The notes under the pieces were generated by a model. The model was not told the origin of the DNA and searched no databases. It saw nothing but the letters and a program-made list of their open reading frames with translations. The position numbers and the translations under genes are program-made. A DNA stretch of 64,000 nt from Kordiimonadales bacterium IMCC3096 (lineage in GTDB: Bacteria > Pseudomonadota > Alphaproteobacteria > Minwuiales > Minwuiaceae), in the NCBI GenBank assembly GCA_016865035.1, contig CP018227.1:1830001-1894000 (forward strand). Direction: 5' to 3'. How positions within the stretch are numbered: position 1 is the stretch's first letter; the number at the start of each line of letters is the position of its first letter. Positions 16,337 to 52,821 of this stretch are shown here, piece by piece.

Positions 16337-16426
16337 CTGACCGCTCCACCCCTCTCCCCCTCCCGGCCACCCATTTCAGGATACTTGCGTGGGTGGCCGG
16401 GAGGGGGAGAGGGGTGGAGCGGTCAG
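16337..16426. repeat. Family A stem-loop element, copy 1 (perfect 37-base arms)
   Basis: Bases 16337-16373 are an exact reverse complement of 16390-16426, with a 16-base loop TTTCAGGATACTTGCG. The inner arm is a pyrimidine tract (CCCCTCTCCCCCTCCCGG) and the outer arm CTGACCGCTCCAC is specific to this copy. Related copies lie at 26704 and 52732. There is no T-run and no transposase gene. Confidence 0.9.
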
Positions 16427-16567
16427 CAAATGAGTCCCGAAAGGGGAGGCATGGTCCACGAACAGACAGATTCCGGTGGCCATCGCGCCTTGATCGGCGC
16501 TAGAAAACCGCCTTCACTGACATGTCGCCGATAGCGGCGATTCGGACCTGCCCGGAGCAGTAACGAC

Positions 16568-17431
16568 GTGCGTCGTTCGAACAAACCACTGGCGTCGCGA
16601 ATGGTCAGCCCGATGGGGCTGCTGTTCAACCGGTTCGCTTTCGCGTTCCTGCTGGCGCTCGGCCTGACGCTGCTGGTGGCGGGCCGTTCCGGCATCGGCC
16701 CGGTGGAGCAGGTGCGTACCGGGCTGCTGGATGTGCTGGCCCCGGTGCTGGATGTCATTTCCCGTCCGGTCTCCGCGATCAACGATCTGGCGACGGAGAT
16801 CGAGCAGCTCTCCCGCGTCTATGAGGAGAACGACCGCCTGCGGCAGGAAAATGCCCGTCTGCTGCACTGGCAGGCGGTGGCGCGGGCGCTGGAACGCGAT
16901 AACGCACAGTACCGCCGCCTGCTGAATGTCCGTGCCCGCTCCGATGTCACCTACATCACCGCCCGTGTCGTGGGTGAGTCCGGGGGCCCTTTCGTCAAGA
17001 CCCTGCTGCTTGCTGCCGGGGAACGCGATGGTGTCGAGCCCGACCAGGCCGTGGTCAGTGAACTCGGGCTGGTGGGCCGGATCACGGAGGCCGGGCGCAA
17101 CGCCGCGCGCATCCTGCTGATCACCGACCTGAACAGCCGCATTCCGGTGATGCTGGAGGGCAGTCGCCGCCGCGCCATCCTGTCGGGCGACAACTCCGGC
17201 CGTCCGCTGCTTGCTTTCCTTGAGGCGGAGGCCGAGGTGCAGCCCGGTGACCGGGTGGTCACCAGTGGCCATGGCGGCATGCTGCCCCCGGGTCTGGTGG
17301 TTGGCGTCGTTGCCTCGGTCACCGAGAACCAGGTCCGCCTGCGCCCCTTCGTCGATCTGGCGCGGCTGGAGCGGGTGAACGTGCTGCGCTATCGCCGTCC
17401 GTCGCTGGTGAATGACCGGAACGGGCCATGA
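16568..17431 (+). CDS. mreC: Rod shape-determining protein MreC
   Basis: 287 residues. It has a short cytoplasmic head, one membrane segment (about 20-40), a coiled coil (about 65-105, with EIEQLSRVYEENDRLRQENA) and the periplasmic MreC beta domains, including GLVGRITEAGRNAARILLITD and the closing GVVASVTENQVRLRPFVDL. MreC organises the elongation complex with MreD, PBP2 and RodA. The start is GTG 16568, which gives the arginine-rich head seen in the family; an in-frame ATG at 16601 is an alternative. Its stop overlaps the mreD start (ATGA). mreB, usually directly upstream in alphaproteobacteria, is not present here. Confidence 0.93.
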   Translation: MRRSNKPLASRMVSPMGLLFNRFAFAFLLALGLTLLVAGRSGIGPVEQVRTGLLDVLAPVLDVISRPVSAINDLATEIEQLSRVYEENDRLRQENARLLHWQAVARALERDNAQYRRLLNVRARSDVTYITARVVGESGGPFVKTLLLAAGERDGVEPDQAVVSELGLVGRITEAGRNAARILLITDLNSRIPVMLEGSRRRAILSGDNSGRPLLAFLEAEAEVQPGDRVVTSGHGGMLPPGLVVGVVASVTENQVRLRPFVDLARLERVNVLRYRRPSLVNDRNGP

Positions 17432-17991
17432 AGCCGCGCCGCCGCAAGTCCGCCAGCAGCCGCATCGGCGATGGCCCCGGCCTGCCACAACTCGGATTCT
17501 GGCGACTTGGACTGGCGATCCCCGGTCTGGTGTCGCTGGTTCTGGTTCTGATGGGCAGCCTGCCGATCGGGGTGCCGTTCCTGGGTCCGGTGCTGCCGGC
17601 TTTCGGTCTGATCGCGGTGCATGTCTTCGCGCTGCAGCGGCCCGACCTGATGCCCCACTGGCTGGCGTTCGGTCTCGGCCTTGTCACCGATCTGCTGTCC
17701 GGCGGGCCGCTTGGCCTGACGGCGCTGGTCTTCCTCGGCGTCCAGGCCCTGTCGGCCAGCCAGCGCCGGGTGCTGATCGGCCGCCCGTTCGTGCTCGGCT
17801 GGGCCGCCTTCGTCGCTGTGGCACTGGCGGCCGCGGGCGTTTCGTGGCTGATCGCCTGCGTCTACTTCCTCGATCTCGTCAATCCGGTGGCAGCCCTGCT
17901 GCAGGTGGCGGTGACGGTCACCCTGTTCCCGCTGGTCGCGGCCCCGCTGCTGCTGCTCAGCCATCGCATGACCGGACAGGCCTTCGCATGA
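17428..17991 (+). CDS. mreD: Rod shape-determining protein MreD
   Basis: 187 residues, with about five membrane segments, fitting MreD. It contains the typical GLVTDLLSGGPLGLTALVFL stretch. It starts within the mreC stop (ATGA overlap) and ends in a tandem repeat that also supplies its stop codon. It should act with MreC, PBP2 and RodA in lateral wall growth. The first 20 residues are basic and hydrophilic. Confidence 0.9.
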   Translation: MKPRRRKSASSRIGDGPGLPQLGFWRLGLAIPGLVSLVLVLMGSLPIGVPFLGPVLPAFGLIAVHVFALQRPDLMPHWLAFGLGLVTDLLSGGPLGLTALVFLGVQALSASQRRVLIGRPFVLGWAAFVAVALAAAGVSWLIACVYFLDLVNPVAALLQVAVTVTLFPLVAAPLLLLSHRMTGQAFA

Positions 17992-18032
17992 CCGGACAGG
18001 ATGGGCGCATGACCGGACGGGCGGGCGCATGA
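17966..18032 (+). repeat. Short tandem repeat across the mreD-mrdA junction
   Basis: GCATGACCGGACAGG occurs at 17966-17980 and 17986-18000, again as GCATGACCGGACGG at 18007-18020, and a shorter remnant GCATGAGG at 18027 starts the mrdA gene. The period is 20-21 bases. The first unit codes for the last residues of MreD and the second provides its stop. Confidence 0.85.
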
Positions 18033-19894
18033 GGGGACGCGTCGAAAAGGCCCGCTATCCTGTGTTCACGCGCCGCGCGCTGATGCTGGGGGGCATGAAG
18101 GCGGCGCTGTTCGCGGCGCTGGGCGCCCGCATGTACTACCTGCAGGTGATCGAGGGTGACCAGTACAAGATGCTGGCCGACGAGAACCGTATCAATCTCG
18201 CCCTGCTGGCACCGCCGCGCGGGCGCATCCTGGACCGGCGCGGTGTGCCGGTGGCGACGAACCGCCAGAACTTCCGCGTCCTGATCGTGCCGGAACAGAC
18301 GAAGTCGGTGGGGGAGACGCTGGATCGGCTGAACCAGATCGTGCCGGTCAGCGACCAGACACGGGCACGGGTGCTGCGCGATGTCAGCCGCAAGCGCCGG
18401 TTCGTGCCGATCTCCGTCGTCGACAATCTGACGTGGGAGGAGTTCGCCCGCATCAATGTCCGCAGCCCCGACCTGCCTGGCATCCAGCTTGATGTCGGCC
18501 AGACCCGCGACTATCCGCTGGGGGTCTATCTGGGCCACACGGTGGGCTATGTCGGCCCGGTCAGCGAGAAGGACCTGAAGGAAGGCGACGGTGACCCCCT
18601 GCTGGAACTGCCGGGCTTCCGCACCGGGCGGCGGGGTCTGGAACGCAGCTTCGAGGGCACCCTGCGCGGTGCCGCGGGCAACCAGCGGGTGGAGGTGAAT
18701 GCCTTTGGCCGGGTCATCCGGGAGCTGTCCCGCACGGAGGGCCGCCCCGGTTCCGACATTCAGCTGACCATCGATGCGCGGCTGCAGCGCATCGCCACCC
18801 AGGCACTGCGGCCCGAAAGCGGGGCCGCCGTGGTGATGGACATTCACAATGGCGATGTGCTCGCCATGGCCTCGACGCCCGGGTTCGACCCCAATGCCTT
18901 CAACGTCGGCATCGGCAACACCGAGTGGCAGACGCTGCTGCGCAACAGCCGCAAGCCCCTGACCGACAAGACCATCGCCGGGCGCTATCCGCCGGGATCC
19001 ACCTTCAAGATGGCCGTGGCGCTGGCGGCGATGGAGGCCAATGTGGCCGGCGCTGCGCACCGGGTGTTCTGCAACGGCAAGCATGTGCTGGGCAATCACA
19101 CCTTCCATTGCTGGAAGCGCTGGGGCCATGGCTGGATGGACCTGAACGACGCCCTGGCGCAGAGCTGTGATGTCTACTTCTACGATATCGCCCGCCGGGT
19201 CGGGGTGGAGAAGATCGCCGTGATGGCGGAACGCCTCGGCCTCGGCCAGACCCTGCTGCCGGAGCTGCCGGGGGAGAGTGCCGGACTGGTGCCGAACCCG
19301 GCCTGGAAGGAAGGCGCGATCGGGGAAGCCTGGCAGGGCGGGGAGACCCTGATCATGGGCATCGGCCAGGGTTATCTGCTGGCCACGCCGCTGCAGCTCG
19401 CGACCATGGCGGCGCGGCTGGCGAACGGGGAGCGTGCAATCTCGCCCCGGCTGGTGTTTCGTGACGAACCGGACGTGGAGGCCCCGCCGCTGGGCCTGTC
19501 GAAGGATGCCCTGCGCCATGTGCGCCAGGGCATGAACGACGTGGTGAACGGCAAGCACGGCACCGCCCGCGCCCATCGGATCACCCAGGAAGGCTGGGAG
19601 ATGGCGGGCAAGACCGGCACGTCCCAGGTCCGCCGCATCAGCCGCGCCGAACGTGAGTCCGGCGTGCTGAAGAACGAGGATCTCGAGTGGCGCAGCCGTG
19701 ACCACGCCCTGTTCGTCGCCTACGCCCCGGTGGACAAGCCGCGCTATGCCCTCTCCGTGGTCGTGGAGCATGGCGGCAGTGGCTCCGCCGCCGCCGCGCC
19801 CGTCGCCCGGACGATCATGGAGGCGACGCTGGAGCTTGATCCCGCCAGCAACCGCAAGCAGCGCGTCGCCGCCAACCCGGAACGGGAGGGCTGA
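18029..19894 (+). CDS. mrdA: Penicillin-binding protein 2 (peptidoglycan D,D-transpeptidase)
   Basis: 621 residues, normal for PBP2. One N-terminal membrane segment (about 20-38) precedes the dimerisation domain with PPRGRILDRRG. The transpeptidase domain has the three motifs: S324-T-F-K (acylated serine), S379-C-D, and K528-T-G. It crosslinks the lateral wall during elongation and is the partner of RodA, whose gene follows three bases after the stop. The ATG at 18029 lies at the end of a tandem repeat and has no strong ribosome binding site, so translation may depend on coupling from mreD. Confidence 0.95.
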   Translation: MRGRVEKARYPVFTRRALMLGGMKAALFAALGARMYYLQVIEGDQYKMLADENRINLALLAPPRGRILDRRGVPVATNRQNFRVLIVPEQTKSVGETLDRLNQIVPVSDQTRARVLRDVSRKRRFVPISVVDNLTWEEFARINVRSPDLPGIQLDVGQTRDYPLGVYLGHTVGYVGPVSEKDLKEGDGDPLLELPGFRTGRRGLERSFEGTLRGAAGNQRVEVNAFGRVIRELSRTEGRPGSDIQLTIDARLQRIATQALRPESGAAVVMDIHNGDVLAMASTPGFDPNAFNVGIGNTEWQTLLRNSRKPLTDKTIAGRYPPGSTFKMAVALAAMEANVAGAAHRVFCNGKHVLGNHTFHCWKRWGHGWMDLNDALAQSCDVYFYDIARRVGVEKIAVMAERLGLGQTLLPELPGESAGLVPNPAWKEGAIGEAWQGGETLIMGIGQGYLLATPLQLATMAARLANGERAISPRLVFRDEPDVEAPPLGLSKDALRHVRQGMNDVVNGKHGTARAHRITQEGWEMAGKTGTSQVRRISRAERESGVLKNEDLEWRSRDHALFVAYAPVDKPRYALSVVVEHGGSGSAAAAPVARTIMEATLELDPASNRKQRVAANPEREG

Positions 19895-19897
19895 GCC

Positions 19898-21037
19898 GTG
19901 ACCATGGGCTATCGCGATGACGGGCCGGACCTGCGTTTCGGCAGGAAACTGCTCAGCCTGAACTGGGGGCTGGTGCTGCTGATCGCGATGACCGCATCTG
20001 TCGGCTTCGCCATGCTCTATTCCGCCGCCGGAGGCGATGTGCAGCCCTGGGCGATCCGGCAGATCATCCGCTTCGGCGGGGGCGCGTTCCTGATGCTGGT
20101 GATCGCGCTGATCGATATCCGCTTCTGGATGCGCTGGGCCTATTTGATCTATGCCGTGGCGCTGGTGCTGCTGCTGGCGGTCGAGTTCGTCGGTACCACC
20201 GGCATGGGGGCGACCCGCTGGGTCAGCCTCGGGTTCTTCAACCTGCAGCCGTCCGAAGTCATGAAGATCGCGCTGGTGCTGGCGCTGGCCCGCTATTTCC
20301 ACGGTCTGTCGCTGGAGGATACGGGGCGCATCACCTACCTGCTGCCGCCGCTGGCCCTGATCGGCATGCCGACCTTGCTGGTGCTGAAGCAGCCGGACCT
20401 CGGCACGGCCCTGCTGCTGGCGGCGGGCGGGTCCATCGTGCTGTTCCTGGCCGGGGTACGGCTGTGGAAGTTCGCCCTGGCGCTGGGTGCCGCGCTGGCG
20501 GCCATGCCCATCGCCTGGTCGCAGCTGCACGAGTACCAGAAGGGTCGCATCATGACCTTCCTGAACCCGGAGAGCGACCCGCTGGGCGCGGGCTATCACA
20601 TCATGCAGTCGAAGATCGCGCTGGGGTCGGGCGGCATCTCCGGCAAGGGCTTCCTGGAGGGGACGCAGAGCCACCTGAACTTCCTGCCCGAGATGCGTAC
20701 CGACTTCATCTTCACCATGCTGGCGGAGGAGTTCGGCATGGTCGGCGGACTGGCACTGATGGGCCTTTACATCCTGATCCTGATCTATGCCTATGCCATC
20801 GGCTTCCGGTCGCGGCACCAGTTCGGGCGGCTGGTCGCGGTCGGCATCGCCACGACCTTCTTCCTCTACATCTTCATCAATATCGGCATGGTGACCGGCA
20901 TCCTGCCCGTTGTCGGCGTGCCGCTGCCGCTGATTTCCTACGGCGGAACCGCGATGCTGACCCTGCTGATCGGCTTCGGCCTGATCCTGTCGGTCTCCAT
21001 CCACCGCGACGTGGAGATCCCGCGCAGCCGGGGATAG
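19898..21037 (+). CDS. rodA: Peptidoglycan glycosyltransferase RodA
   Basis: 379 residues, SEDS family with about ten membrane segments. Conserved stretches include AAGGDVQPWAIRQ, GFFNLQPSEVMKI and KQPDLGTALLL, then NFLPEMRTDFIFTMLAEEFG and the closing LPLISYGGTAMLTLL. It polymerises glycan strands with PBP2. The start is GTG 19898 with GGGAGGG about 10 bases upstream; ATG 19904 is possible. It is the last gene of the mreC-mreD-mrdA-rodA operon, and a nested palindrome element follows. Confidence 0.95.
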   Translation: MTMGYRDDGPDLRFGRKLLSLNWGLVLLIAMTASVGFAMLYSAAGGDVQPWAIRQIIRFGGGAFLMLVIALIDIRFWMRWAYLIYAVALVLLLAVEFVGTTGMGATRWVSLGFFNLQPSEVMKIALVLALARYFHGLSLEDTGRITYLLPPLALIGMPTLLVLKQPDLGTALLLAAGGSIVLFLAGVRLWKFALALGAALAAMPIAWSQLHEYQKGRIMTFLNPESDPLGAGYHIMQSKIALGSGGISGKGFLEGTQSHLNFLPEMRTDFIFTMLAEEFGMVGGLALMGLYILILIYAYAIGFRSRHQFGRLVAVGIATTFFLYIFINIGMVTGILPVVGVPLPLISYGGTAMLTLLIGFGLILSVSIHRDVEIPRSRG

Positions 21038-21093
21038 GTGGATCTGTCAGGGGGCGTTCGCTGATCCTGGCGCCCCTGTGGGTGCTTCTTCGT

Positions 21094-21235
21094 CTTCCCC
21101 CCTTGAGGGGGAAGTGGCCGCGCAGCGGTCGATGGGGGGTGAAGCCGCAGGCTGTTGCACAGTGGCGAAGTCATGACTGTTCGGCTGCGCCGATTCACCC
21201 CCATCCCGACCTTCCCCCGTCGAGGGGGAAGGAGG
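21094..21235. repeat. Nested palindromic intergenic element (family C)
   Basis: A 142-base element bounded by two small palindromes: CTTCCCCC/GGGGGAAG at 21094-21114 and CCTTCCCCC/GGGGGAAGG at 21213-21235. Inside it, GATGGGGGGTGAA near 21131 is mirrored by TTCACCCCCATC near 21195. It lies between rodA and the liv operon. It looks like a REP-type element; only one copy is in this window. Confidence 0.7.
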
Positions 21236-21322
21236 GTGCGCCTGCGATCGACTGCTCCTGACCACCGCCAATCCCATCACAACTACTTGACGGATCAGGC
21301 GTGATCCCGCCAACTCCGGGGC

Positions 21323-23146
21323 ATGGGATTCTACTTCGCACAGGCCCTGACGGGGCTCGCCAGCGCGTCGTCGCTGTTTCTGGTTGCTGCCGGGCTCAGC
21401 CTGATCTTCGGCGTCACGCGGGTGGTCAATTTCGCCCATGGCTCGCTCTACATGATCGGTGCCTATGTCGCGATGGATGTCATCGGGCTGTTCGGCAAGG
21501 TGCCGGGGTTCTGGCTGGCACTGCCCATCGCCGCCCTGGTCTCTGCCGCCGTCGGCGGGCTGATCGAGGTCACCGTGCTGCGCCGCATCTATCGCGCGCC
21601 GGAGATGTTCCAGCTTGTCGCCACCTTCGCCATCGTGCTGATCGCGCAGGATGTGGCGGAATGGATCTGGGGCGTTGCCGACCGCTTCGGCCCCCGCGCG
21701 CCGGGCCTGTCCGGCGTCGTCACCATATTCGGTGAGCGCATACCGGAGTACGACCTGTTCCTGATCGCCATGGGACCGATCACGCTGTTCCTGCTCTGGC
21801 TGCTGTTCGCCCGCACCCGTTTCGGTGTGCTGGTCCGCGCCGCGACACAGGACAGGGAGATGGCGGCGGCGCTGGGTGTGGATCAGGCCAAGCTGTTCAC
21901 GGCTGTCTTCTGCCTCGGGGCCGGACTGGCGGGGCTGGGCGGTGCGATGCAGGTGCCCCGCGATGCCGTCACCCTGACCATGGATCTGGAGATCATCGCG
22001 GAGGTCTTCGTCATCACCGTGGTTGGCGGCATGGGCTCCATCCCCGGGGCCTATCTGGCTGCCATCCTGATCTCCGAACTGAACGCCTTCGGCATCCTGA
22101 TCCTGCCGGAGATCACCCTGATCGTGGCCTTCGCCGCCATGGCGGTGGTGCTGGTGATCCGCCCCTACGGGCTGCTGGGCCGTCCGCCGTCGGCCCCGGA
22201 GACGCCGCCCGGTCCGGGCATGGGCACCCTGCGGCTGCCGGCCATGGCCTGGGGCGGGCTGTTTCTGGTCATGGCGCTGCTGCCGCTGGTGGTGGACCAG
22301 TTCATGACCGTGCTGATCATCGACATCATGATCCTGGGCATGTTCGCCATGTCGCTGCAGTTCCTGATGGGGCCGGGGGGCATGGTCAGCTTCGGCCACG
22401 CCGCCTACTTCGGTGTCGGCGCCTATGGCGCGGCGCTGCTGGTGCGGCATCTGGAGGCGGACATGGGCTGGGCGCTGGCCGTGGCCCCGGTGGCCGCCGC
22501 CGCCGCGGCGCTGTTCTTCGGCTGGTTCTGTGTCCGCCTGTCCGGGGTCTATCTCGCCATGCTGACGCTGGCTGCCGCCCAGATCGTCTGGGCCGCCGCG
22601 GTGCAGATGCAGGACTTCACCGGCGGCGATGACGGCCTGACCGGAATCTGGCCGGCGAAGCTCTTCGGCGATGACCTGGCCTTCTACTACCTGGCGCTGG
22701 CCTTCGCGGTGATCGCCGTTCTGGTGCTGCGGCAGGCGACCCGCAGCCCGTTCGGACGGGCGCTTACCGCCGCACGGGACGCGCCGCTGCGGGCGGAGGC
22801 GCTGGGCATCAACGTGCAGAACCAGCAATGGATGGCCTTCACCCTGGCCGGGACCGTCGCGGGTCTTGCCGGTGGTCTCTACGTGTTCAAGAAGGGCAGC
22901 GTCTTTCCCGATGTGCTGGCCATCCCGCAGTCGGTCGATGCCCTGATCATGGTGCTGCTGGGCGGTGTCGATGTGCTGGCGGGCGCGCTGATCGGGGCCT
23001 CCACCTTCGTGGTGCTGGAGGATGTGTTCAACCAGTTCGAGGCCTGGCGGTCGATGCTGGGCGGCGTGATCCTGCTGATCGCCATGCTGGCACCCGGCGG
23101 CATGGCCGGTCTCGGCAGCATGATACGGCGGCGGAAACCGGCATGA
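21323..23146 (+). CDS. Fused branched-chain amino acid ABC transporter permease (LivH-LivM)
   Basis: 607 residues. Residues 1-290 are LivH-like (LSLIFGVTRVVNFAHGSLYM, and VVGGMGSIPGAYLAAILI) and residues 310-607 are LivM-like (GPGGMVSFGHAAYFGVGAYG, and EALGINVQNQQWMAF). Together they form about 16 membrane segments, so both halves of the permease dimer are in one chain. It imports amino acids or related small solutes with the two ATPases downstream. The substrate-binding protein gene is not next to it. The stop overlaps the next start (ATGA). There is no strong ribosome binding site before ATG 21323. Confidence 0.92.
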   Translation: MGFYFAQALTGLASASSLFLVAAGLSLIFGVTRVVNFAHGSLYMIGAYVAMDVIGLFGKVPGFWLALPIAALVSAAVGGLIEVTVLRRIYRAPEMFQLVATFAIVLIAQDVAEWIWGVADRFGPRAPGLSGVVTIFGERIPEYDLFLIAMGPITLFLLWLLFARTRFGVLVRAATQDREMAAALGVDQAKLFTAVFCLGAGLAGLGGAMQVPRDAVTLTMDLEIIAEVFVITVVGGMGSIPGAYLAAILISELNAFGILILPEITLIVAFAAMAVVLVIRPYGLLGRPPSAPETPPGPGMGTLRLPAMAWGGLFLVMALLPLVVDQFMTVLIIDIMILGMFAMSLQFLMGPGGMVSFGHAAYFGVGAYGAALLVRHLEADMGWALAVAPVAAAAAALFFGWFCVRLSGVYLAMLTLAAAQIVWAAAVQMQDFTGGDDGLTGIWPAKLFGDDLAFYYLALAFAVIAVLVLRQATRSPFGRALTAARDAPLRAEALGINVQNQQWMAFTLAGTVAGLAGGLYVFKKGSVFPDVLAIPQSVDALIMVLLGGVDVLAGALIGASTFVVLEDVFNQFEAWRSMLGGVILLIAMLAPGGMAGLGSMIRRRKPA

Positions 23147-24625: not shown

Positions 24626-24980
24626 GGCCTCCGGACCAGTCCGCCAACATCGGCGCGGCACACTGGGTACCCGGGTCAAGCCCGGGCACGGCGTCAGTGG
24701 GGTGTTGGTGGCGGTGAGCACCAATGTCCCGCCCTCCCCCACGCCGCTCGCGGACTTGATCCGCGAGCCCAGCTCTCGGCACTGAATCAAATCAGTTCGC
24801 ACTGAGGCCTCCGCGCCAGTCCGCTGACGTCGGCGCGGCACGCTGGGTACCCGGGTCAGGCCCGGGTACGGCGTCCGTGGGGTGGCAATGTCCCACCACG
24901 CCCACGTCGCTCGCGGACTTGATCCGCGAGCCCAGCTCTCGATACTGAATCAGATCAGATCGCGCTGAGGCCTCCGGGCC
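24622..24980. repeat. Tandem composite palindromic repeat (family B), two and a bit units
   Basis: Units begin with CTGAGGCCTCCG at 24622, 24802 and 24964 (partial). Unit 1 is 180 bases and unit 2 is 162 bases. Each holds two palindromes: one around GTACCCGGGTCA-GGCCCGGG-type sequence and one around CTCGCGGACTTGATCCGCGAG, followed by an AT-richer tail (CACTGAATCAAATCAG or similar). The first unit begins within the livF stop codon. A related cluster in the opposite orientation lies at 34850-35215. This fills the 388-base gap before nudC. Confidence 0.85.
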
Positions 24981-25013
24981 TGTTCGTCACCACCCGTACC
25001 GGCAAGGAGAGAA

Positions 25014-26689: not shown

Positions 26690-26703
26690 GGGGATTTCAT
26701 TCG

Positions 26704-26793
26704 CTGACCGTGCCTCCCCTCTCCCCCTCCCGGTCACCCACGCAAGTATCCTGTAATGGGTGGCCGGGAGGGGGAGAGGGGAGGTGCGGTCAG
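26704..26793. repeat. Family A stem-loop element, copy 2
   Basis: 37-base arms at 26704-26740 and 26757-26793 with only three non-Watson-Crick positions, two of which keep G-T type pairs. The loop CGCAAGTATCCTGTAA is the reverse complement of the copy 1 loop with one change, so this copy is inverted relative to copy 1. The outer arm reads CTGACCGTGCCTCC. Confidence 0.88.
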
Positions 26794-26925
26794 CAAACAA
26801 GACCGGGTCCACGCAACAACCGCGACGCGGTCCGCAAACAACTCGCCCGAGGGCAATTCCCTTGCGGGCCGTTCTGCGTTAAACGTCGCGACAATCGCAT
26901 ACACCGGATTGCAGGAGCCATCGGC

Positions 26926-34828: not shown

Positions 34829-35239
34829 TCCAGCCGCCACCACTCCGCTGACGCCATACCCGGGTTCGACCCGGGTACCCGGTGTACCGCGCTGACGTGG
34901 GTGAGCAGGCGCGGCTGCCTCCGCGCAACCTGGTTCAATGCCTTGCCGAGAGCTGGACCCGCGGATCAAGTCCGCGGGTGCCGTGATGGGTGTTGGTCAG
35001 GTGACCCACTGGCAATGCCATCTTCCCCACGCCGTACCCGGGCTTGACCCGGGTACCCAGCAGCGCTGGGCAAGCCTGGGAGACCGGGCTCGCGGATCAA
35101 GTCCGCGAGCGGCGTGGGGGAGGGGTGAGCGATCTAACTGAAATCTCCCACCCCACAGACGCCGTGCCCGGGCCTGACCCGGGTACCCACTGTGCCGCGT
35201 CGGCGTCTGACAGTGATCCAGATGCGCGGGAAGAAGAAC
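34829..35239. repeat. Cluster of family B palindromes between the hyuA-like gene and rnpB
   Basis: Five palindromic modules occur. Three centre on a CCCGGGTN-GACCCGGGTAC-type sequence (near 34857-34882, 35032-35060 and 35163-35192) and two on CGCGGATCAAGTCCGCG (near 34959-34978 and 35090-35110), with the flanks GAGAGCTGG and GACCGGGCT. They are the reverse complement of the modules found in tandem at 24622-24980. The gap shows no gene. Confidence 0.8.
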
Positions 35240-35634
35240 GTCAGGTGGCCTGTAAGCCGGGTTCTGTCCGTTCCCGTTGCCGGGAACTGGATGACCATTC
35301 ATCTGGGACACCCGTCGCCGGATGCCTCGTGCAACCAACCCGGACGGCGGGCCGGAGCGCCCTGCTGCCTCTGCCTTGCGGCATGACATCCAGCCATCCC
35401 TATTCGGTCTTGCTCCCGGTGGGGTTTACCCTGCCAGCGACGTTGCCGCCGCCGCGGTGCGCTCTTACCGCACCGTTTCACCCTTGCCCGTGTCGCCACG
35501 GGCGGTCTGTTCTCTGTGGCACTTTCCCTGGGGTCGCCCCCGCCGGGCGTTACCCGGCACCGATTCTCCGTGGAGCCCGGACTTTCCTCCACCGCGCCTT
35601 GCGGCACGACAGCGGTCATCCAGCCACCTGACGC
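35240..35634 (-). ncRNA. rnpB: RNase P RNA (alphaproteobacterial type A)
   Basis: About 393 bases. The P1 helix is formed by GTCAGGTGGC at the 5' end (35632-35623) and GCCACCTGAC at the 3' end (35249-35240, read on the minus strand). The 5' universally conserved region GAGGAAAGTCCGGGCTCC lies at 35590-35572 and the 3' conserved region AGAACCCGGCTTA at 35265-35253. The RNA is the catalytic subunit that cuts tRNA 5' leaders. Ends are placed from P1 and from the promoter just upstream; the exact 3' end is uncertain by several bases. Confidence 0.95.
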
Positions 35635-43625: not shown

Positions 43626-43680
43626 TCTGATCGCCTGAGACGACGACCCGGCACCGCTGGTGCCGGCATGAGACCAGCAG

Positions 43681-45789: not shown

Positions 45790-45821
45790 TGAGCGCCTGA
45801 CGAAACCATCAGTCGGGGGGA

Positions 45822-46259: not shown

Positions 46260-46303
46260 TTGTCCCCAGACCGTCGGATTGGCAGTGCATCCGGCACAAG
46301 GCG

Positions 46304-46435: not shown

Positions 46436-46528
46436 TTCGCGAAACTATCGCTTCTCGGGTCTTAAGAAAATGCGCATCAGCGTGAACTTCCCTTGTGTGC
46501 GGCGACTGTCACGTCCAGAAATGCACCC

Positions 46529-47623
46529 ATGGACATGACGGATCGCTTTCAGACGGGATGGGGCGCGGACGCCGACTGGCGCACTGCGCTGGGACAGTGT
46601 CTCGACATGATCGACACGGACCTGGCGCACAGTGGTCCCGGCTTCGTCTATCTGTCCGACCATTTCTCCGGCGACGCCCAGGGTATCCTCACCGTGCTGC
46701 GGGGCCGCACCGGCATCGGCGACTGGGTGGGTACGGCGGGGATCGGCATTCTGGCAAATGACCAGCAGTTCTTCGATCACCCCGCCATCGCCGTGATGCT
46801 GACGTCGGTCGCGGAGGGGGCTTCACATCTGCTGCGCCCGGACGGTGTTTCGCCGCCCCCCTTCATGCCATGGTTCGGCGTGGCCCATGCGGATCCGGGC
46901 CAGCCCGAGCTGCGGGAGAGCCTGCGGGTGCTGGAGCAGCAGCCGGGAGGCTACTGGGTTGGCGGTCTTGCCGCCTCCCGGGGTCCGAACCCGGTGATGG
47001 CGAAGACCCTGACGACCGGGGGACCGGCAGGTATCGTCTTCTCCGATCAGGTTCCCGTCGTCACGGCCCTCACCCAGGGATGCACCCCGATCGGTCCGGC
47101 GCGGGAGATCACGCGGGCGGAACGCAACATCGCCATCGAGCTGGATGGCCGTCCGGCATTCGAGCTCTTCCGGCAGGACATCGGCGAGATCCTGTCGCGC
47201 AACCTGGACCGGATACCCGGCTTCATCTTTGCCGGACTTGCTCCGGCGGGTCAGGACAGCGGCGACTATCTGGTGCGGGAGATCGCGGGCGTCGATCCGC
47301 AGCACGGCCTGGTGGCGGTGGCGGAGGAGGTCACGGTCGGGCAGCGGCTCATGTTCTGCCGCCGCGACGGTGCAGCAGCCGTGGCGGACATGGAACGGAT
47401 GCTGGACACGCTGGAACAGCGCACGGGCGGGGCCACGCCGCGCGGCGGCCTCTACTTCAGTTGCCTTGGCCGCGGCCCGAACCTGTTCGATGACCAGCGC
47501 ACCGAGGCCGCGATGATCCGGGAACGCTTCCCCGACCTGCCGCTGATCGGCTTCTTCGGCAATGGCGAGATCGCAAACAGCCGCCTCTATGCCTACACGG
47601 GTGTGCTGTCGCTGTTCCTCTAA
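46529..47623 (+). CDS. FIST N- and C-domain sensory protein
   Basis: 364 residues. An N-terminal FIST domain (about 10-200) and C-terminal FIST_C domain (about 210-364) are recognisable from DTDLAHSGPGFVYLSDHFSG, the VGTAGIGIL turn, and near the end GGLYFSCLGRGPNLF and LIGFFGNGEIA. FIST domains are thought to bind small ligands such as amino acids and often occur in signalling proteins. This one has no kinase or other output domain. The start is uncertain: ATG 46529 or 46535, with no clear ribosome site. It is divergent from the lipoprotein-BLUF pair. Confidence 0.87.
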   Translation: MDMTDRFQTGWGADADWRTALGQCLDMIDTDLAHSGPGFVYLSDHFSGDAQGILTVLRGRTGIGDWVGTAGIGILANDQQFFDHPAIAVMLTSVAEGASHLLRPDGVSPPPFMPWFGVAHADPGQPELRESLRVLEQQPGGYWVGGLAASRGPNPVMAKTLTTGGPAGIVFSDQVPVVTALTQGCTPIGPAREITRAERNIAIELDGRPAFELFRQDIGEILSRNLDRIPGFIFAGLAPAGQDSGDYLVREIAGVDPQHGLVAVAEEVTVGQRLMFCRRDGAAAVADMERMLDTLEQRTGGATPRGGLYFSCLGRGPNLFDDQRTEAAMIRERFPDLPLIGFFGNGEIANSRLYAYTGVLSLFL

Positions 47624-47641
47624 GCCCGGGCGACCGGACCC

Positions 47642-48592
47642 CTACTGCTCCAGCTGCTGCCACATGTCCTTGTCGCGTTCGGCGGTCCAGATGCGGGGGT
47701 GGTCGATGCCGCTGGCCTCGTCATAGGCGCGGGAGATGTCGAAGGGCATGCAGTGGGCGAAGATCGACCAGTGGCCGTACTTGCCTTCCAGCGCCGGAAC
47801 CACCGTGTCGTAGGCTTCCTTGAGCGAATGGTTGGCGGCGACCTCGCGGGCGACACCGTCGTAGAGCGCACGGATGAAGCTTTCCGTGCCGGCGATGGCT
47901 TCCTCGCAGGCTTCCGGCGTCTTCATGGCGGGGCCACGGCCGGGAATCAGGAAATCCGGTTTCAGGGCGCGCAGCTTGTCCAGGGTGCCGGGCCAGTCGC
48001 GCAGATGTGCGTCGCCCGTGTAGGGGGTGGCGCCATTCTCCACCAGATCGCCGGAGAACAGCACCTTCTGTGACGGCACCCAGACGATGGTGTCGCCGCG
48101 GGTGTGGCCGCGGCCGGGATGCATGACCTGCACCTCCAGATCACCCATCATGATGGTCATCCGGTCGGAGAAGGTCATGGTCGGCCAGGTCAGGCCGGGA
48201 ATGCTCTCGATGCCCTGGAACAGGCGCGGGAAGCGATCTGCCTCCGACTTGTAGTCGGCGTCGCCGCGCTCGCGGATCATCTCCATCGTCGGCTCGGAGG
48301 CAATGATGTGCTCCGCGCCATAGGCGGCGGCCCCCAGCACCCGGACAGCGTGATAATGGGTCAGCACGACATAGCGGAACGGCTTGTCGGTCACTTCCCG
48401 CACCCGGCGGATCAGGTCATCCGCCGCAATGGGTGTGGCGCGGGTATCGATCACCATGACGCCGTCGTCGCCGATGATCACGCCGGATGTGGGATCACCC
48501 TCCTCCACATAGACCCAGGTATTCTCCGTCAGTTGCTCGAACGTGATTTCCTTCGGCCCCAGATCCTGTGTCGATGCGAATGCGCGCGCCAT
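47642..48592 (-). CDS. MBL-fold metallo-hydrolase with altered metal motif
   Basis: 316 residues with the metallo-beta-lactamase fold. The usual H-x-H-x-D-H motif appears as THYHAVRVLGA, so the Asp and the second-site His are replaced. Later ligands are present: GRGHTRGD, LFSGDLVENG and possibly the His in FAHCMPF. Similar proteins with HYHAVR occur in many proteobacteria, some near quinoprotein systems. It may bind one metal or have a changed reaction. It is convergent with the FIST gene (18 bases) and divergent from a PaaX-family regulator, which could control it. Confidence 0.88.
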   Translation of the reverse strand: MARAFASTQDLGPKEITFEQLTENTWVYVEEGDPTSGVIIGDDGVMVIDTRATPIAADDLIRRVREVTDKPFRYVVLTHYHAVRVLGAAAYGAEHIIASEPTMEMIRERGDADYKSEADRFPRLFQGIESIPGLTWPTMTFSDRMTIMMGDLEVQVMHPGRGHTRGDTIVWVPSQKVLFSGDLVENGATPYTGDAHLRDWPGTLDKLRALKPDFLIPGRGPAMKTPEACEEAIAGTESFIRALYDGVAREVAANHSLKEAYDTVVPALEGKYGHWSIFAHCMPFDISRAYDEASGIDHPRIWTAERDKDMWQQLEQ

Positions 48593-48719
48593 GCCGCCGT
48601 CTCCCCTGGTTCATGCCGGCTGTCGACCGGTCCCGTTGCGTTCAGATAAGAGCACGCAACCCTGTACCGCAAGCCCTGCGGGATTGAATGACCGTGATTT
48701 GCCGGTAACATCGGCACCC

Positions 48720-49688
48720 ATGGCCACGACCATGCAAGATCGCCGGACACCGGACGGCTCCGGCGACCGCGGCGGAACCGCCCTGGTTCCCGTCGTGCGC
48801 CACCTGCTGGACCAGGTACCCGTGCGGGCGCCATCGCTGATCGTCACCGTCTGGGGCGACACCATCTCCGCGCATGATTGCCCGGTATGGCTGGGCAGCC
48901 TGATCCGTCTTCTGGCCGATTTCGGACTCAACGAGCGGGTGGTGCGGACAGCCGTCTTCCGTCTGCAGAAGGACAACTGGCTGCGGGGCCGACAGGCGGG
49001 ACGGCGCAGCTTCTATGACCTCGCCGCGTCCGGCCGCCGCCGCTCCGACGCCGCCCACCGGACCATCTACCGCTCCGCCCGTGGCGAATGGGATGGCTGC
49101 TGGCTCACCCTGATGGCCACGTCCGACGCCATGCGCCGCGCGGATCAGCTCCGGCGTGATCTGGCCTGGATGGGGTTTGGCTCACCTGCGCCGGGCGTCT
49201 TCCTGCACCCTGACATGTCGGAGCAGGCCGTGCGCGCGCTGCTGCATGACCAGGGCATGGAGGACCAGGTCGTCGTGCTGCGCGCCAGGGCCGAGGCCGG
49301 TTCGGAACCAGCGGCCCTGCGGCATCTGGCGCGGGAAGCCTGGGACCTCGCCTCCCTGGAGGGCGGATACAGTGATTTCCTGCGGCTGTTCACACCGGTG
49401 ATGGAACATGTGACGCAGCACGGCTCCCTGCCGGACCGGGACGCCTTCGTGGTACGGACGCTGCTGATTCACGAATTCCGGCGTGTCACCCTGCGTGATC
49501 CGCTGCTGCCGCAGGCCGTGCTCGGCAAGGACTGGCCGGGCGAGACAGCGCGACAGCTTTCCGCCAGTCTGTATCGCGCGATTCACGCGCAGGCGACGGC
49601 GCATGCGATGCGCCATCTGGAAACTGCGGATGGGGGACTGCCCCCGCCGCGCAGGGGATACTATGATCGGTATGGTGGCCTGGACTGA
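48720..49688 (+). CDS. PaaX-family transcriptional regulator
   Basis: 322 residues, PaaX-like: an N-terminal winged helix (about 25-95, with APSLIVTVWGDTIS and NERVVRTAVFRLQKDNWL), a middle domain with ARGEWDGCWLTLM, and a C-terminal domain with LIHEFRRVTLRDPLLP. PaaX represses phenylacetate degradation and senses phenylacetyl-CoA; other members control other aromatic pathways. No paa genes are in the window. The neighbours suggest it may regulate the divergent MBL hydrolase or the downstream flavoprotein and SDR genes. Starts ATG 48720 or 48732 are both possible. Confidence 0.88.
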   Translation: MATTMQDRRTPDGSGDRGGTALVPVVRHLLDQVPVRAPSLIVTVWGDTISAHDCPVWLGSLIRLLADFGLNERVVRTAVFRLQKDNWLRGRQAGRRSFYDLAASGRRRSDAAHRTIYRSARGEWDGCWLTLMATSDAMRRADQLRRDLAWMGFGSPAPGVFLHPDMSEQAVRALLHDQGMEDQVVVLRARAEAGSEPAALRHLAREAWDLASLEGGYSDFLRLFTPVMEHVTQHGSLPDRDAFVVRTLLIHEFRRVTLRDPLLPQAVLGKDWPGETARQLSASLYRAIHAQATAHAMRHLETADGGLPPPRRGYYDRYGGLD

Positions 49689-49733
49689 GGGGATGCGGTC
49701 GGGCCAACAGGTGATGAAACGGGGAGGAAGCAA

Positions 49734-51038
49734 ATGACCATGCATGTGGCAATCATCGGCGCGGGCCCGGCCGGATTCTATGCGGCGGAGGCCCTGGCCA
49801 CGAAGGGGGAGGGGGTCATGGTCGATCTGATCGACCGGCTGCCGACGCCCCATGGCCTGATCCGGTCAGGCGTCGCCCCTGATCACCAGACCACCAAGCG
49901 CGTCACGAAGAAATACGACCAGACCGCATCGCGGGAGAACGTGCGCTACGTCGGCAATGTCACCCTGGGCCGGGATGTGACGATGGATGAACTGCGCGAT
50001 CTCTATGACGCGGTCATCATCGCCTTCGGCGCGGAGGGGGATCGCCCCATGGGCATTCCGGGGGAGGACAAGGAGGGGGTGCTCGGCTCCTTCGCCTTCG
50101 TCGGCTGGTACAATGGCCATCCGGATTTCGTCGATCTGGACATCGACCTGGATGTCAGCGACGTCGCCGTCATCGGCAACGGCAACGTAGCGCTCGACTG
50201 CGCCCGTCTGCTGGCGCGCACCGAGGACGAGATGAAGGCATCCGACCTGACCGATGAGGCCGGAGAGGTGCTGTTCAACAGCGCCGTGACCGATGTGCAT
50301 CTGATCGGACGCCGTGGTCCGGTGGAGGCGAGCTTCTCCATCGCCGAGATGCGGGAGATGGGGGAGCTGCAGCGCGGCATCTCCCTGGTGCACGATGACC
50401 AGATTCCGGAGGCGCTGCCGCACGGCATGGATCCGAAGGAGGCGCGCGGTCGCAAGGCGGTGCTGGAGGTGCTGCAGTCGTTCCGCGGCAATACCCGCGA
50501 CCAGGCCCCGGTGGCGGTACATTTCGAGTTCTTCCTGCGCCCCGTCGAAGTGCTCGGCGACGACAGGGTCACGGGCATCCGTGTGGAGCGGACGAAGCTG
50601 GAGGATGGCCGTGCGGTCGGTACCGGGGAGATCTTCGACATTCCCTGCGGCATGGTCATCAGCTGCATCGGCTATGTCAGCCGCCCCATCGACGGGCTGC
50701 CCATGGAGTATGGCAAGGTCGTCAATGACCGGGGGCGCGTCGCGCCCGGCGTCTATGTCGTCGGCTGGGCCAAGCGCGGCCCCAGCGGTACCATCGGCAC
50801 CAACCGCCCGGACGCGCAGGATGTTGTCACGCTGCTGCTTGAAGACATGAGCGACGGCGCGGGCAAGCAGGGTGGCGCGGGACTGGATGCGCTGCTGATC
50901 CAGCGCGGTGTCCGCCACGTCAGCTACAACGACTGGCTGGTGATCGATCAGGCGGAGCAGGATCGTGCCGACCCGGAAGCGCCAAGGCGGAAATTCATCA
51001 CGATTCCGGATATGCTGTCCGTCGTTGACGAGTCCTGA
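49734..51038 (+). CDS. FAD-dependent ferredoxin-NADP+ reductase (adrenodoxin reductase type)
   Basis: 434 residues. It has the FAD loop GAGPAG (9-14), an NADP loop IGNGNVALDCAR, GRRGPVEASF, and the C-terminal WAKRGPSGTIGTNRPDA, all typical of FprA/adrenodoxin reductase proteins. These move electrons between NADPH and a ferredoxin that feeds an oxygenase such as a cytochrome P450 or Rieske enzyme. GGGGAGGAAGC precedes the start. It could serve the Rieske oxygenase at 40 kb, which lacks its own reductase gene nearby; that is inference. The phosphoesterase gene follows after 24 bases. Confidence 0.9.
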   Translation: MTMHVAIIGAGPAGFYAAEALATKGEGVMVDLIDRLPTPHGLIRSGVAPDHQTTKRVTKKYDQTASRENVRYVGNVTLGRDVTMDELRDLYDAVIIAFGAEGDRPMGIPGEDKEGVLGSFAFVGWYNGHPDFVDLDIDLDVSDVAVIGNGNVALDCARLLARTEDEMKASDLTDEAGEVLFNSAVTDVHLIGRRGPVEASFSIAEMREMGELQRGISLVHDDQIPEALPHGMDPKEARGRKAVLEVLQSFRGNTRDQAPVAVHFEFFLRPVEVLGDDRVTGIRVERTKLEDGRAVGTGEIFDIPCGMVISCIGYVSRPIDGLPMEYGKVVNDRGRVAPGVYVVGWAKRGPSGTIGTNRPDAQDVVTLLLEDMSDGAGKQGGAGLDALLIQRGVRHVSYNDWLVIDQAEQDRADPEAPRRKFITIPDMLSVVDES

Positions 51039-51062
51039 CGCAAGCGGAGGCGGCGGCGCGCC

Positions 51063-51865
51063 ATGATCCTGATCCAGATCAGTGACCTGCACATAACGGA
51101 CCCCGGTGAGCCGGTGGACAGGCTCGCCCGGACGACCGAGCGGCTGGCGATCGCGGTGGCGCGGATCAATGCCATGCAGCCCCGGCCCGACGGGGTCATC
51201 GTCACCGGCGATCTGGTGAACGAATGCCGGACCAGCGAGTACGAGCGGCTGCGTCAGACCCTCGCGCCCCTTCAGGTCCCGATCTGGCTGATGGTCGGCA
51301 ACCATGACGCCCGCGACGACCTGCGTCTGGTCTTCGACGATCATGCCTATCTCGGCACCGGGGCTTCGTGCAGTACACGGTGGAGGATCTTTCCGTGCGC
51401 CTGATCGCCCTGGACAGCCAGATCCCCGGCGAGACGGCGGGTCGGCTCTGCGCGGAGCGGCTGGGCTGGCTGGAGGATCGTCTGGAGGAACAGCCCGACC
51501 GGCCGACCATGATCTTCGTGCATCATCCGCCGTTCCCCAGCGGCATCGACCGCATGGACGCCAACGGACTTGTCGAGGGGCGGGAGGAACTGGCGCGGAT
51601 CGTCGGTGCGCACCGTCAGGTGCTCGGCATCTCGGCGGGCCATGTGCATCGCCCGATCATGACCTCCATCGCAGGTGTGCCGGCGCATACCTGCCCCAGT
51701 ACCGCGCATCAGCTCGGCCTCGACCTGCTGCGCACGGATGGTGTCAGCATCGTCGCCGAGCCACCGGCCTGCCTGATGCACACCCGCCAGCCAGGTGCGC
51801 CGCTGGTGACGCATCATGTCTATCTGGACGACTATCCTGTGCTGGCGGATGTCAGCATGAAGTAG
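51063..51865 (+). pseudogene. Calcineurin-like phosphoesterase (CpdA type), frameshifted
   Basis: Two overlapping frames together encode one metallophosphoesterase of about 267 residues. The first part (51063 to about 51360) holds DLHITDPG, GDLVNE and GNHDAR; the second (from about 51363 to 51865) continues FVQYTVEDLSVRLIALDS and holds HHPPFP and GHVHRP. All metal ligands are present once joined. The break is at a GGGG run (51360-51363): one extra G would restore GTGGFVQYT. Relatives hydrolyse cAMP or other phosphodiesters. Either the gene is inactive, phase-variable at the G run, or the base is a sequencing error. GGAGG lies upstream of ATG 51063. Confidence 0.88.
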
Positions 51866-51958
51866 GGTCGGTCTTGTCTGCGGACCGTGCAGGCACGGTC
51901 GGCGGATGACACACATCTGCGATACCGAACAACTGCAAACCCTGGGGAGGGACAGATC

Positions 51959-52717
51959 ATGAGTTTCATCAACACGACGGTTGTCGTCACCGGCGCCGCA
52001 CGCGGCATCGGCAAGGCCTACGCAAAGGGATTCGCCGGGCTGGGGGCCAATGTGGTGGCCACCGACATTTCCGACTGCGACGCGGTGGTCGAGGAGATCA
52101 CGGCCTCCGGCGGGACGGCCATGGCCCATGCCTGCGACATCTCGAAGATGGACCAGATGACGGAACTCGCGGCGAAGACGGCGGAACGGTTCGGCCCTGC
52201 CGCCGTGCTGATCAACAATGCCGCGCTCTACGGCACGCTGGGTGGCGGACGCTTCGACAAGCTGACGGAGGAAAGCTGGGACGCCGCCATGGCGGTCAAC
52301 GTGAAGGGGCTGTGGAATGCGGCCAAGGCCTTCGTGCCCCAGATGCGCGAGCTGGGCGGCGGCTCCATCATCAATATCTCCTCGCTGGCCGCGACCTACG
52401 GCCTCGCCTATGCGCTGCACTATACGGTGTCCAAGGCGGCCGTGATCGGCCTGACCCGGGGACTGGCGCGGGAACTGGGCCGCGACCGCATCCGCGTCAA
52501 CGCCATCGCACCCTCCGCCGTGCTGACCGAAGGCACGATCGAGTTCATGGGCGAGAAGTACGAGAAGGCGCTGGATGTCATCGCCTCCGGCCAGTCGATC
52601 CAGCGCAACCTGGACAGCGAGGATCTGGTCGGCACGGCGATCTGGCTGGCCTCCGACGCCTCCGCCATGGTCACGGGCCAGACCATTGCCGTCGACGGCG
52701 GCACGGTGTTCCTCTGA
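51959..52717 (+). CDS. Short-chain dehydrogenase/reductase (SDR)
   Basis: 252 residues, classical SDR. The cofactor loop is TGAARGIG, NNAALYG corresponds to NNAG, the catalytic Ser is in INISSLAATYG, and the Tyr/Lys pair is in YTVSKAA. The C-terminus (GQTIAVDGGTVFL) is typical. It reduces or oxidises a carbonyl/hydroxyl compound with NAD(P). GGGGAGGGACAG precedes ATG 51959. It follows the phosphoesterase by 93 bases and is followed by a family A stem-loop element. Substrate unknown. Confidence 0.92.
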   Translation: MSFINTTVVVTGAARGIGKAYAKGFAGLGANVVATDISDCDAVVEEITASGGTAMAHACDISKMDQMTELAAKTAERFGPAAVLINNAALYGTLGGGRFDKLTEESWDAAMAVNVKGLWNAAKAFVPQMRELGGGSIINISSLAATYGLAYALHYTVSKAAVIGLTRGLARELGRDRIRVNAIAPSAVLTEGTIEFMGEKYEKALDVIASGQSIQRNLDSEDLVGTAIWLASDASAMVTGQTIAVDGGTVFL

Positions 52718-52731
52718 GCGGAGTCTGACCT

Positions 52732-52821
52732 CTGACCGTTCCGCCCCTCTCCCCCTCCCGGCTACCCACGCAAGTATCCTGAAATGGGTGGCCGGGAGGG
52801 GGAGAGGGGCGGAACGGTCCA
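52732..52821. repeat. Family A stem-loop element, copy 3
   Basis: Arms at 52732-52768 and 52785-52821 pair almost fully; the last two bases and one internal base differ. The loop CGCAAGTATCCTGAAA is the exact reverse complement of the copy 1 loop. The outer arm CTGACCGTTCCGCC differs from both other copies and its partner GGCGGAACGG changes with it. It lies between two convergent genes. Confidence 0.9.

What the first reader, a model, noticed from the sequence alone, without database searches (positions are those of the whole stretch)
16337..52821. Three dispersed 90-base stem-loops whose arms co-vary between copies
Copies at 16337-16426, 26704-26793 and 52732-52821 share a CCCCTCTCCCCCTCCCGG-type inner arm and a 16-base loop (present in both orientations). 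The outer arms differ: GCTCCAC, TGCCTCC and TTCCGCC, each matched by its own complement on the far side. Copy 1 has 37 perfectly paired bases. Compensating change implies either selection for the folded form (RNA or cruciform) or a copying process that rebuilds one arm from the other. No transposase or REP-associated tyrosine transposase gene is in the window, so these would be non-autonomous. I do not know a named family that fits.
Basis: partly seen in the sequence, partly recalled or inferred. Interest (0 to 1): 0.75.

Follow-up and report, generated by a model that had tools for sequence, protein, structure and literature searches.

The report
Alphaproteobacterial hairpin repeats with co-evolving arms
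The three stem-loops belong to a family of short DNA hairpins scattered between genes of this bacterium, with relatives in other Alphaproteobacteria; the two halves of a hairpin tend to change together, probably because one half is copied from the other when DNA is replicated.

Summary
The hairpins are real: three of at least 66 copies in this complete 4.29 Mb genome (genus Minwuia, inferred). Window stems span 35-38 positions around 16-nt loops. By a rough gene finder 65 of 66 copies are intergenic, close to gene 3' ends. 34 of 387 genomes of the class, own included, have matches. Arms co-vary: 14 of 37 pairs changed on both sides in 31 copies; outer stem columns agree between arms in 84.5% of cells against 53.8% shuffled, and coupling fades where the stem ends. 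In 27 anchored orthologous pairs with a 92.6%-identical relative, 21 show columns changed on both sides. Eleven of 63 copies carry a 9-mer found in both arms and in no other copy; two loci have a one-base length change in both arms. Loops are inverted in 4 of 22 pairs. I favour arm-from-arm copying by template switching, plus exchange between copies; many one-sided changes persist, so copying is slow or patchy, and selection on an RNA hairpin is not excluded. No Y1 transposase was found in eight of nine genomes of the family. REP and CIR criteria are not met. Copy 2 has two uncompensated outer DNA mismatches. An undescribed family of a known kind, as far as I could search.

The parts
16336..16427 (-). 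Copy 1 of the hairpin: arms 16336-16373 and 16390-16427 (38 of 38 paired), 16-nt loop in the orientation opposite to copies 2 and 3
26703..26794 (+). Copy 2: 38-position arms, 3 mismatches (two of them the outer TG/TG mismatch), 16-nt loop
52734..52819 (+). Copy 3: 35-position arms, 1 mismatch, 16-nt loop
16326..16330 (.). GANTC site (GACTC) in the left spacer of copy 1
   Evidence: sequence; family-wide counts
16432..16436 (.). GANTC site (GAGTC) in the right spacer of copy 1
   Evidence: sequence
16443..16467 (.). Probable remnant of an extra half-unit (arm plus spacer) outside copy 1
   Evidence: sequence; inferred by comparison with tandem half-units of other copies
52721..52725 (.). GANTC site (GAGTC) in the left spacer of copy 3
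   Evidence: sequence
52820..52834 (.). Right spacer of copy 3 (CACAGACAAGACCCG)
   Evidence: sequence; residual flank conservation to about 16 bp
52835..52856 (.). Probable remnant of an extra half-unit outside copy 3
   Evidence: sequence; inferred

Best explanation
A family of non-coding palindromic repeats: a stem of 35-38 positions in the window copies, a loop of about 14-18 nt, and weakly conserved spacers of about 16 bp (so roughly 120 bp in all, inferred), lying between genes close to their 3' ends. It is a REP/MITE-like, apparently non-autonomous element of Alphaproteobacteria. Shown: copy number, intergenic and 3'-end placement, arm co-variation, orthologous positions with changed arms, variants private to the two arms of one copy, loop inversion. 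Inferred: at the replication fork the strand folds back or the polymerase switches template, so that one arm is rewritten from the other and the loop is sometimes turned round. Exchange with other copies and with tandem half-units brings in new arm types, at times one arm at a time, and templating then restores the stem. How copies reach new sites is not shown.
For: Co-variation in 31 own copies: 14 of 37 pairs, 76 cells against 30.6 shuffled; in 38 copies from several genera, 10 of 32 pairs and 107 cells once the register is corrected (slide +1). Stem columns 24-31 agree between arms in 84.5% of cells (shuffled 53.8%, maximum 61.1%), columns 32-33 in 71.4% (60.5%), columns 34-45 about as shuffled. 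27 anchored orthologous pairs with G001: 21 have at least one column changed on both sides, 49 such columns (9 from the one indel locus 1294469, which is out of register); independent change at the mean flank divergence of 7.4% would give about 1.5 (my arithmetic). Eleven of 63 own copies hold a 9-mer shared by both arms in register and by no other copy. Of 13 strings tried, 5 occur only in the two arms of a single locus among the loci then held: the six-C run of L104, CCTACC of 1758634, CCGGCCGGCC of L083, CCCACTCC of L263, CCGACCC of L082. In this genome 3071897 has a four-C run in both arms, against five in both arms of 37 of 40 copies scored. Loop orientation differs in 4 of 22 scorable pairs. 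Arm homogenization with spacer inversion is described as an outcome of template switching (PMC8604942, abstract and passages); PMC8794818 argues that template switching makes compensatory stem changes (abstract, opening text and Discussion).
Against: One-sided changes are common: 74 one-arm changes and 7 of other kinds in the same 27 pairs, many in decayed copies; 13 one-sided against 2 two-sided deviations at inner conserved columns in 42 near-perfect copies; 22 copies have a private 9-mer in one arm only, and 7 of the 11 have both kinds. Two own copies have unmatched C-run lengths (2004283, 2115697). Several of the 11 private 9-mers are new combinations at the variable columns, not new letters. 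Arm types recur across loci (TGTTCCAT 6, CGTTCCT 5, CGTTCCG 5 among 42 copies), which replacement by other copies also explains. Chimeric arms exist (3041112, 1813499, 1804043, 1622165). Only 3 of 26 orthologous pairs clearly keep the loop while the arms change. G001 and G002 are metagenome assemblies, in which short repeats can be mis-joined, and 19 of the 31 G001 partner loci were fetched because they hold an intact arm.
Confidence: 0.52

Rival explanations
1. Selection for the folded RNA: the hairpins sit in 3' untranslated regions as terminators or 3'-end stabilisers, and compensatory mutations are kept because a broken stem is harmful.
For: Hairpins lie near gene 3' ends: median 20 bp to a 3' end against 67 bp to a 5' end; nearer the 3' end in 37 of 42 tandem contexts. 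65 of 66 fall outside predicted genes (overlaps up to 25 bp allowed) where about 84% of sequence is coding. Very stable RNA folds; the TG/TG mismatch of window copy 2 pairs as wobbles in RNA. In 3 of 19 orthologous intervals of G004 and G005 an inverted repeat of other sequence beats all 40 shuffles, among them a perfect 17-bp one in G005 at 1807915.
Against: Unpaired changes are tolerated: 44 of 63 copies have at least one mismatch in 31 positions. In 15 of the 19 intervals no inverted repeat beats the shuffles; a fourth exception, G004 at 1751883, is a family member. No TTTT within 15 nt after the stem on either strand in 63 copies. Copies are missing, reduced or centre-deleted at some places in close relatives. 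One-base length changes in both arms are hard to reach through selection on single steps.
Confidence: 0.2
2. Cassette turnover: whole hairpins, born perfect, replace older ones by gene conversion or repeated transposition into existing copies; arms match only because the donor was perfect.
For: Arm types recur across loci. Half-unit remnants flank many copies, and some orthologs differ by a whole arm type plus a remnant of the other type. Loops also change between orthologs (mean 3.1 edits, random pairs 4.2). A possible rearrangement junction in G001 lies at two copies.
Against: 11 of 63 copies carry two-arm 9-mers found in none of the other 62 anchored copies, so no donor was seen, although copies missed by the model could exist. 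Orthologs remain closer to each other than random pairs in variable arm letters (3.8 against 6.1 of 12) and in loops, so they were not simply replaced at random.
Confidence: 0.22
3. Mobile MITE or IS200/605-type element moved by a Y1 (RAYT) transposase that recognises the hairpin.
For: Dispersed, intergenic, hairpin-shaped, patchy across genomes. An older copy (1173460) has 13-bp terminal inverted repeats by eye, and G036 copies have inverted repeats of about 15-18 bp around them. 12 of 25 genomes tested have a Y1_Tnp match, several of them hairpin carriers.
Against: No Y1_Tnp match in G000-G007, although G000, G001, G002 and G004 carry many hairpins; none in G036, G068, G073, G260, G295 either, which carry hairpins. 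No clean new insertion was established between G000 and G001 in the loci compared. No GTAG or CGTC directly at the stem base (0 of 126 arm ends; within the outer 15 nt 3 and 5).
Confidence: 0.06

Closest known systems
REP / CGTC- and GTAG-tagged palindromic repeats (PMC3733652; CGTC section and passages seen)
   Same: Intergenic palindromic repeats; CGTC families are mainly alphaproteobacterial; patchy between species
   Different: CGTC stems measure 8-9 bp with 4-5 nt loops and carry a tag; here stems of 35-38 positions, loops of about 14-18 nt, no tag
CIR, CcrM-associated intergenic repeats of Caulobacter and Brucella (Chen and Shapiro 2003, not held; read through the review PMC2229807, passages)
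   Same: About 110 bp, intergenic, alphaproteobacterial, holds GANTC, long inverted repeats
   Different: CIR has two inverted repeats joined by a linker with GANTC at a terminal loop; here one long hairpin, GANTC in the spacer of some copies and in the loop in 1 of 63
Br-REP1/Br-REP2 of Bradyrhizobium (PMC5082802, passages)
   Same: Alphaproteobacterial palindromes in 3' untranslated regions; varying abundance between relatives
   Different: Different sequence (Br-REP1 CCGGAATCTCGAGATTCCGG) and a much shorter stem
MITEs such as Correia/NEMIS, RUP, RPE (review PMC2229807, passages)
   Same: Short non-autonomous repeats forming long stem-loops
   Different: No target-site duplication or parent transposon found here
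Template-switch (quasipalindrome) mutation (PMC8794818: abstract, opening text, Discussion; PMC8604942: abstract and passages)
   Same: Arm homogenization, multi-base compensatory changes, spacer inversion
   Different: Described there for RNA genes and yeast coding regions; here for a dispersed bacterial repeat family

Membership tests
REP with RAYT | GTAG or CGTC tetranucleotide at the foot of the stem | tested here: not met
   0 of 126 arm ends at columns 32-35; within the outer 15 nt GTAG in 3 and CGTC in 5 of 126
REP with RAYT | Short stem (CGTC type 8-9 bp) | tested here: not met
   Stems of 35-38 positions in the window copies
REP with RAYT | Y1/RAYT transposase in the genome | tested here: not met
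   0 matches to PF01797 in G000
CIR | GANTC in a terminal loop | tested here: not met
   1 of 63 loops
CIR | Two long inverted repeats joined by a linker | tested here: inconclusive
   One hairpin in the main subfamily; by eye a second small hairpin in G036 copies and in old copies such as 1173460
CIR | Sequence similarity to CIR1-CIR4 | not testable with these tools
   The CIR paper is not held
MITE | Terminal inverted repeats | tested here: inconclusive
   Spacers are weakly conserved to about 16 bp; columns 34-45 are not clearly more alike between the two sides of a copy than shuffled; clear terminal repeats by eye only in old copies and G036
MITE | Target-site duplication or clean empty site | tested here: inconclusive
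   Intervals without the element in G004 and G005 are too diverged; the candidate empty site in G000 reads as a centre-deleted relic; G001 at 1808427 has an unrelated 313-bp interval
Rfam structured RNA | Match at gathering score | tested here: not met
   Only RNase P in the window
Intrinsic terminator | T-run directly after the stem | tested here: not met
   TTTT within 15 nt after the stem, either strand: 0 of 63 copies; a separate hairpin with a T-run lies just before copy 2

The most novel reading that the evidence does not exclude
A self-perfecting palindrome: the element persists and diversifies because one arm is routinely rewritten from the other, so that only one arm carries heritable information and the stem is renewed at replication or at the birth of a copy (fold-back-primed synthesis). 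Arm types then evolve freely while the hairpin form is kept by a mutational process instead of by selection.
Probability: 0.25. Interest if true: 0.75.

Novelty: new member of a known kind. Interest (0 to 1): 0.48.

Why it matters
Compensatory change is usually read as proof that a folded RNA is under selection. This family, with dozens of copies per genome in several related species and uncoupled flanks as built-in controls, is a natural test of whether replication alone can produce such co-variation. If it can, covariation tests on bacterial repeats need a mutational null model.

Tried and rejected
Y1/RAYT-driven REP: not supported for this genome. GTAG/CGTC REP: tag absent at the stem base. 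GANTC as a special feature: enriched in the flanks (41 against 8.2 expected), but so is the control CT.AG by the same factor (23 against 4.6), and three of the other six controls are raised about two-fold, so it probably just reflects related spacers. A need for any hairpin at these spots: 4 of 19 intervals in G004 and G005 beat all 40 shuffles, one of them a family member. Position: 46 of 66 copies lie in 1.0-2.0 Mb, a range chosen after seeing the data (binomial P 1.8e-15), beside the skew switch near 2.0-2.1 Mb that I read as the origin (25 sampled stretches, one of them 75% masked); no cause found, and the copies of G036 gave no clear answer. Loop kept while arms are swapped: only 3 of 26 pairs. 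The candidate new insertion in L093 turned out to face a centre-deleted copy in G000.

Errors of mine: model R1 was built with the stem one column out of register (seen); it served, where the sequence carried the score; R2 is corrected and served. crashed; some loci were mis-oriented (8 overlap mismatches), corrected (0). Rows dropped: 3 of 66 copies could not be anchored; of 31 G001 and 13 G002 partner intervals, 4 and 6 could not be anchored; locus 1294469 was left out. Partners were sought only among loci already fetched, so 35 of 66 copies have no G001 partner; 19 of the 31 come from the pattern scan and so favour intact hairpins.
Full report
OBSERVATION. The three stem-loops are present. 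Copy 1 (16336-16427) has 38 of 38 paired positions, copy 2 (26703-26794) 35 of 38, copy 3 (52734-52819) 34 of 35, each around a 16-nt loop. The loop of copy 1 is turned round relative to the other two. Folding energies lie 13 to 17 standard deviations below shuffles. The outer arms complement each other exactly in copies 1 and 3; in copy 2 two DNA positions do not, although RNA could wobble there.

FAMILY SIZE AND PLACE. The window is part of a single-contig genome of 4,291,441 bases listed as 100% complete. A covariance model gives 128 matches on both strands at E up to 0.01, which I merged into 66 places; only 150 of 2505 candidates were scored and the weakest places are decayed, so 66 is neither exact nor an upper bound. 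The genus is inferred: copies in relative G001 have the contig numbers and positions of Minwuia thermotolerans DHS20C03 records (taxonomy). By a rough codon-usage gene finder 65 of 66 copies are intergenic (overlaps up to 25 bp allowed), against a coding fraction of about 84%. They hug gene 3' ends: 50 of 70 flanking 3' ends are within 30 bp, against 15 of 60 flanking 5' ends, and in tandem contexts the hairpin is nearer the 3' end in 37 of 42. 46 of 66 lie in 1.0-2.0 Mb.

ANATOMY. The common copy reads spacer - GACCG(NN)CC(N)CCCCTCTCCCCCTCCCGGCCACCCA - loop - complement - spacer. Fifty of 63 loops contain A(G/T)TATCCT or AGGATA(A/C)T. Spacers show residual conservation to about 16 bp. GANTC is enriched in the 45 bp outside the stem, 41 sites against 8.2 expected, 21 of them 10-11 bp out; but the control motif CT.AG is enriched by the same factor (23 against 4.6) and AG.CT, AC.GT and TC.GA about two-fold, so related spacer sequence explains it. 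Several copies have additional half-units (arm plus spacer) in tandem outside the stem, for example 1531021, 1549819, 1588950 and 1711232. By eye, an older subfamily (1173460, 2620441, 1904672) carries an extra small hairpin or terminal repeats, and copies in the distant genome G036 sit inside inverted repeats of about 15-18 bp with a second hairpin.

DISTRIBUTION. With the corrected model 34 of 387 genomes of the class, own included, match at E up to 1e-4, in 23 of 264 genera (strict filters and at most 11 candidates scored per genome, so a lower bound). Within the genus the load varies (matches on both strands, ceiling 74): G001 74, G002 73, G004 47, G005 10, G003 2, and the single-contig G006 0.

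CO-VARIATION. In 31 own copies 14 of 37 pairs have changes on both sides; 76 cells, shuffled mean 30.6, slid structures at most 10. In 63 anchored copies stem columns 1-23 agree between arms in 93.8% of cells (shuffled 88.7%), columns 24-31 in 84.5% (shuffled 53.8%, maximum 61.1%), columns 32-33 in 71.4% (60.5%), while columns 34-36, 37-40 and 41-45 (41.3, 37.3, 35.9%) are close to shuffled (42.9, 39.4, 32.0%). So the coupling fades where pairing ends.

ORTHOLOGS. Partner intervals were found in G001 for 31 of 66 copies; mean flank identity 92.6%. Twenty-seven have a hairpin that could be anchored, three more show one by eye, and 1808427 does not. Nineteen of the 31 G001 loci were fetched because they hold an intact arm, 12 by ortholog search. 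Of the 27, 21 show at least one column changed on both sides, 49 columns in all (9 from locus 1294469, where an extra base in both arms puts the comparison out of register), 74 columns changed in one arm and 7 of other kinds; the one-arm changes are concentrated in decayed copies (1498956, 2126782, 1496159, 1807194, 2520569). Independent change at 7.4% would give about 1.5 two-sided columns (my arithmetic). For window copy 1, G000 has CGCTCCA, G001 CGGGCCA and G002 CGTGCCT, each paired, with the same loop. At 1807915 G001 keeps, just outside its own hairpin, an arm of the type that G000 has on both sides. Loops are inverted in 4 of 22 scorable pairs. In 26 pairs orthologs are closer than random pairs, in loops (3.1 against 4.2 edits) and in variable arm letters (3.8 against 6.1 of 12): shared loci that evolve fast, not independent insertions. 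In G002, 13 partner intervals: 7 anchored; among the other 6, 1496159 has none and 1499632 and 1813499 have remnants.

MECHANISM. Eleven of 63 copies have a 9-mer shared by both arms in register and by no other copy; some are new letters in conserved columns (1711232, 1758634, 1807194), others new combinations at variable columns. Of 13 strings tried, five are found only in the two arms of one locus among the loci then held; four of these five are in the metagenome assemblies G001 and G002, one (1758634) in this genome. In this genome 3071897 has a four-C run in both arms, against five in both arms of 37 of 40 copies scored; two copies have unmatched runs. That suggests a process that writes both arms together. 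Arm homogenization and spacer inversion are described outcomes of template switching, which has been proposed to create compensatory changes in RNA stems. Against a fast corrector stand the one-sided inner changes, 13 against 2 in 42 near-perfect copies, and chimeric arms. I therefore propose slow arm copying plus exchange between copies and half-units. Selection for a 3'-end RNA hairpin remains possible: the position favours it, and 3 of 19 intervals in more distant relatives hold another inverted repeat beyond chance, while 15 do not. G001 and G002 are metagenome assemblies, so chimeric arms in them may be artefacts; the within-genome results do not depend on them.

MOBILITY. No Y1_Tnp match in G000-G007; one in G008 of the same family; matches in 12 of 25 genomes tested, without a fixed link to hairpins. 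Other transposase families were not searched. No target-site duplication or clean empty site was established in the loci compared. Present-day mobility is unproven.

KNOWN OR NEW. No Rfam match over the hairpins at gathering score. The two core strings searched occur in 3 held papers, all unrelated by title; topic searches (listings) led to reviews and papers on CIR, CGTC/GTAG REPs, Br-REP and MITEs, of which I saw passages; none described there has this stem length or sequence. I did not see the CIR paper itself. My verdict is an undescribed family of a known kind.

Noticed in passing
window 21080-21230: Another dispersed repeat of about 140 bp with inverted CTTCCCCC..GGGGGAAG ends; 35 listed places in G001 and G002 at 83-92% identity, one in G004, and a copy near 1502746 in G000; not the hairpin family.
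   Followed up: partly
window 24631-24970: A repeat present twice in tandem, with CCCGGGTCAAGCCCGGG and CGCGGACTTGATCCGCGAG palindromes; further copies in G001 and G002 at 72-85%.
   Followed up: no
G000 1.0-2.0 Mb: 46 of 66 hairpins cluster in under a quarter of the genome, beside the GC-skew switch at about 2.0-2.1 Mb. Unexplained.
   Followed up: partly
L093 4354-4586 against window 52734-52819 and G000 1070724: In G001 the sequence after the ortholog of copy 3 continues as the flank of another G000 copy about 0.8 Mb away: a rearrangement between copies or a metagenome assembly error.
   Followed up: partly
G036 loci L331, L334, L335, L337, L338, L341, L342: In a distant genome the hairpin is part of a composite element with inverted repeats of about 15-18 bp and, in several copies, a second GAATGGGCC..GGCCCATTC hairpin.
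   Followed up: partly
G005 interval orthologous to G000 1807915: A perfect 17-bp hairpin of other sequence stands where G000 and G001 have the family's hairpin.
   Followed up: no
window 35237-35631, minus strand: RNase P RNA, class A.
   Followed up: no
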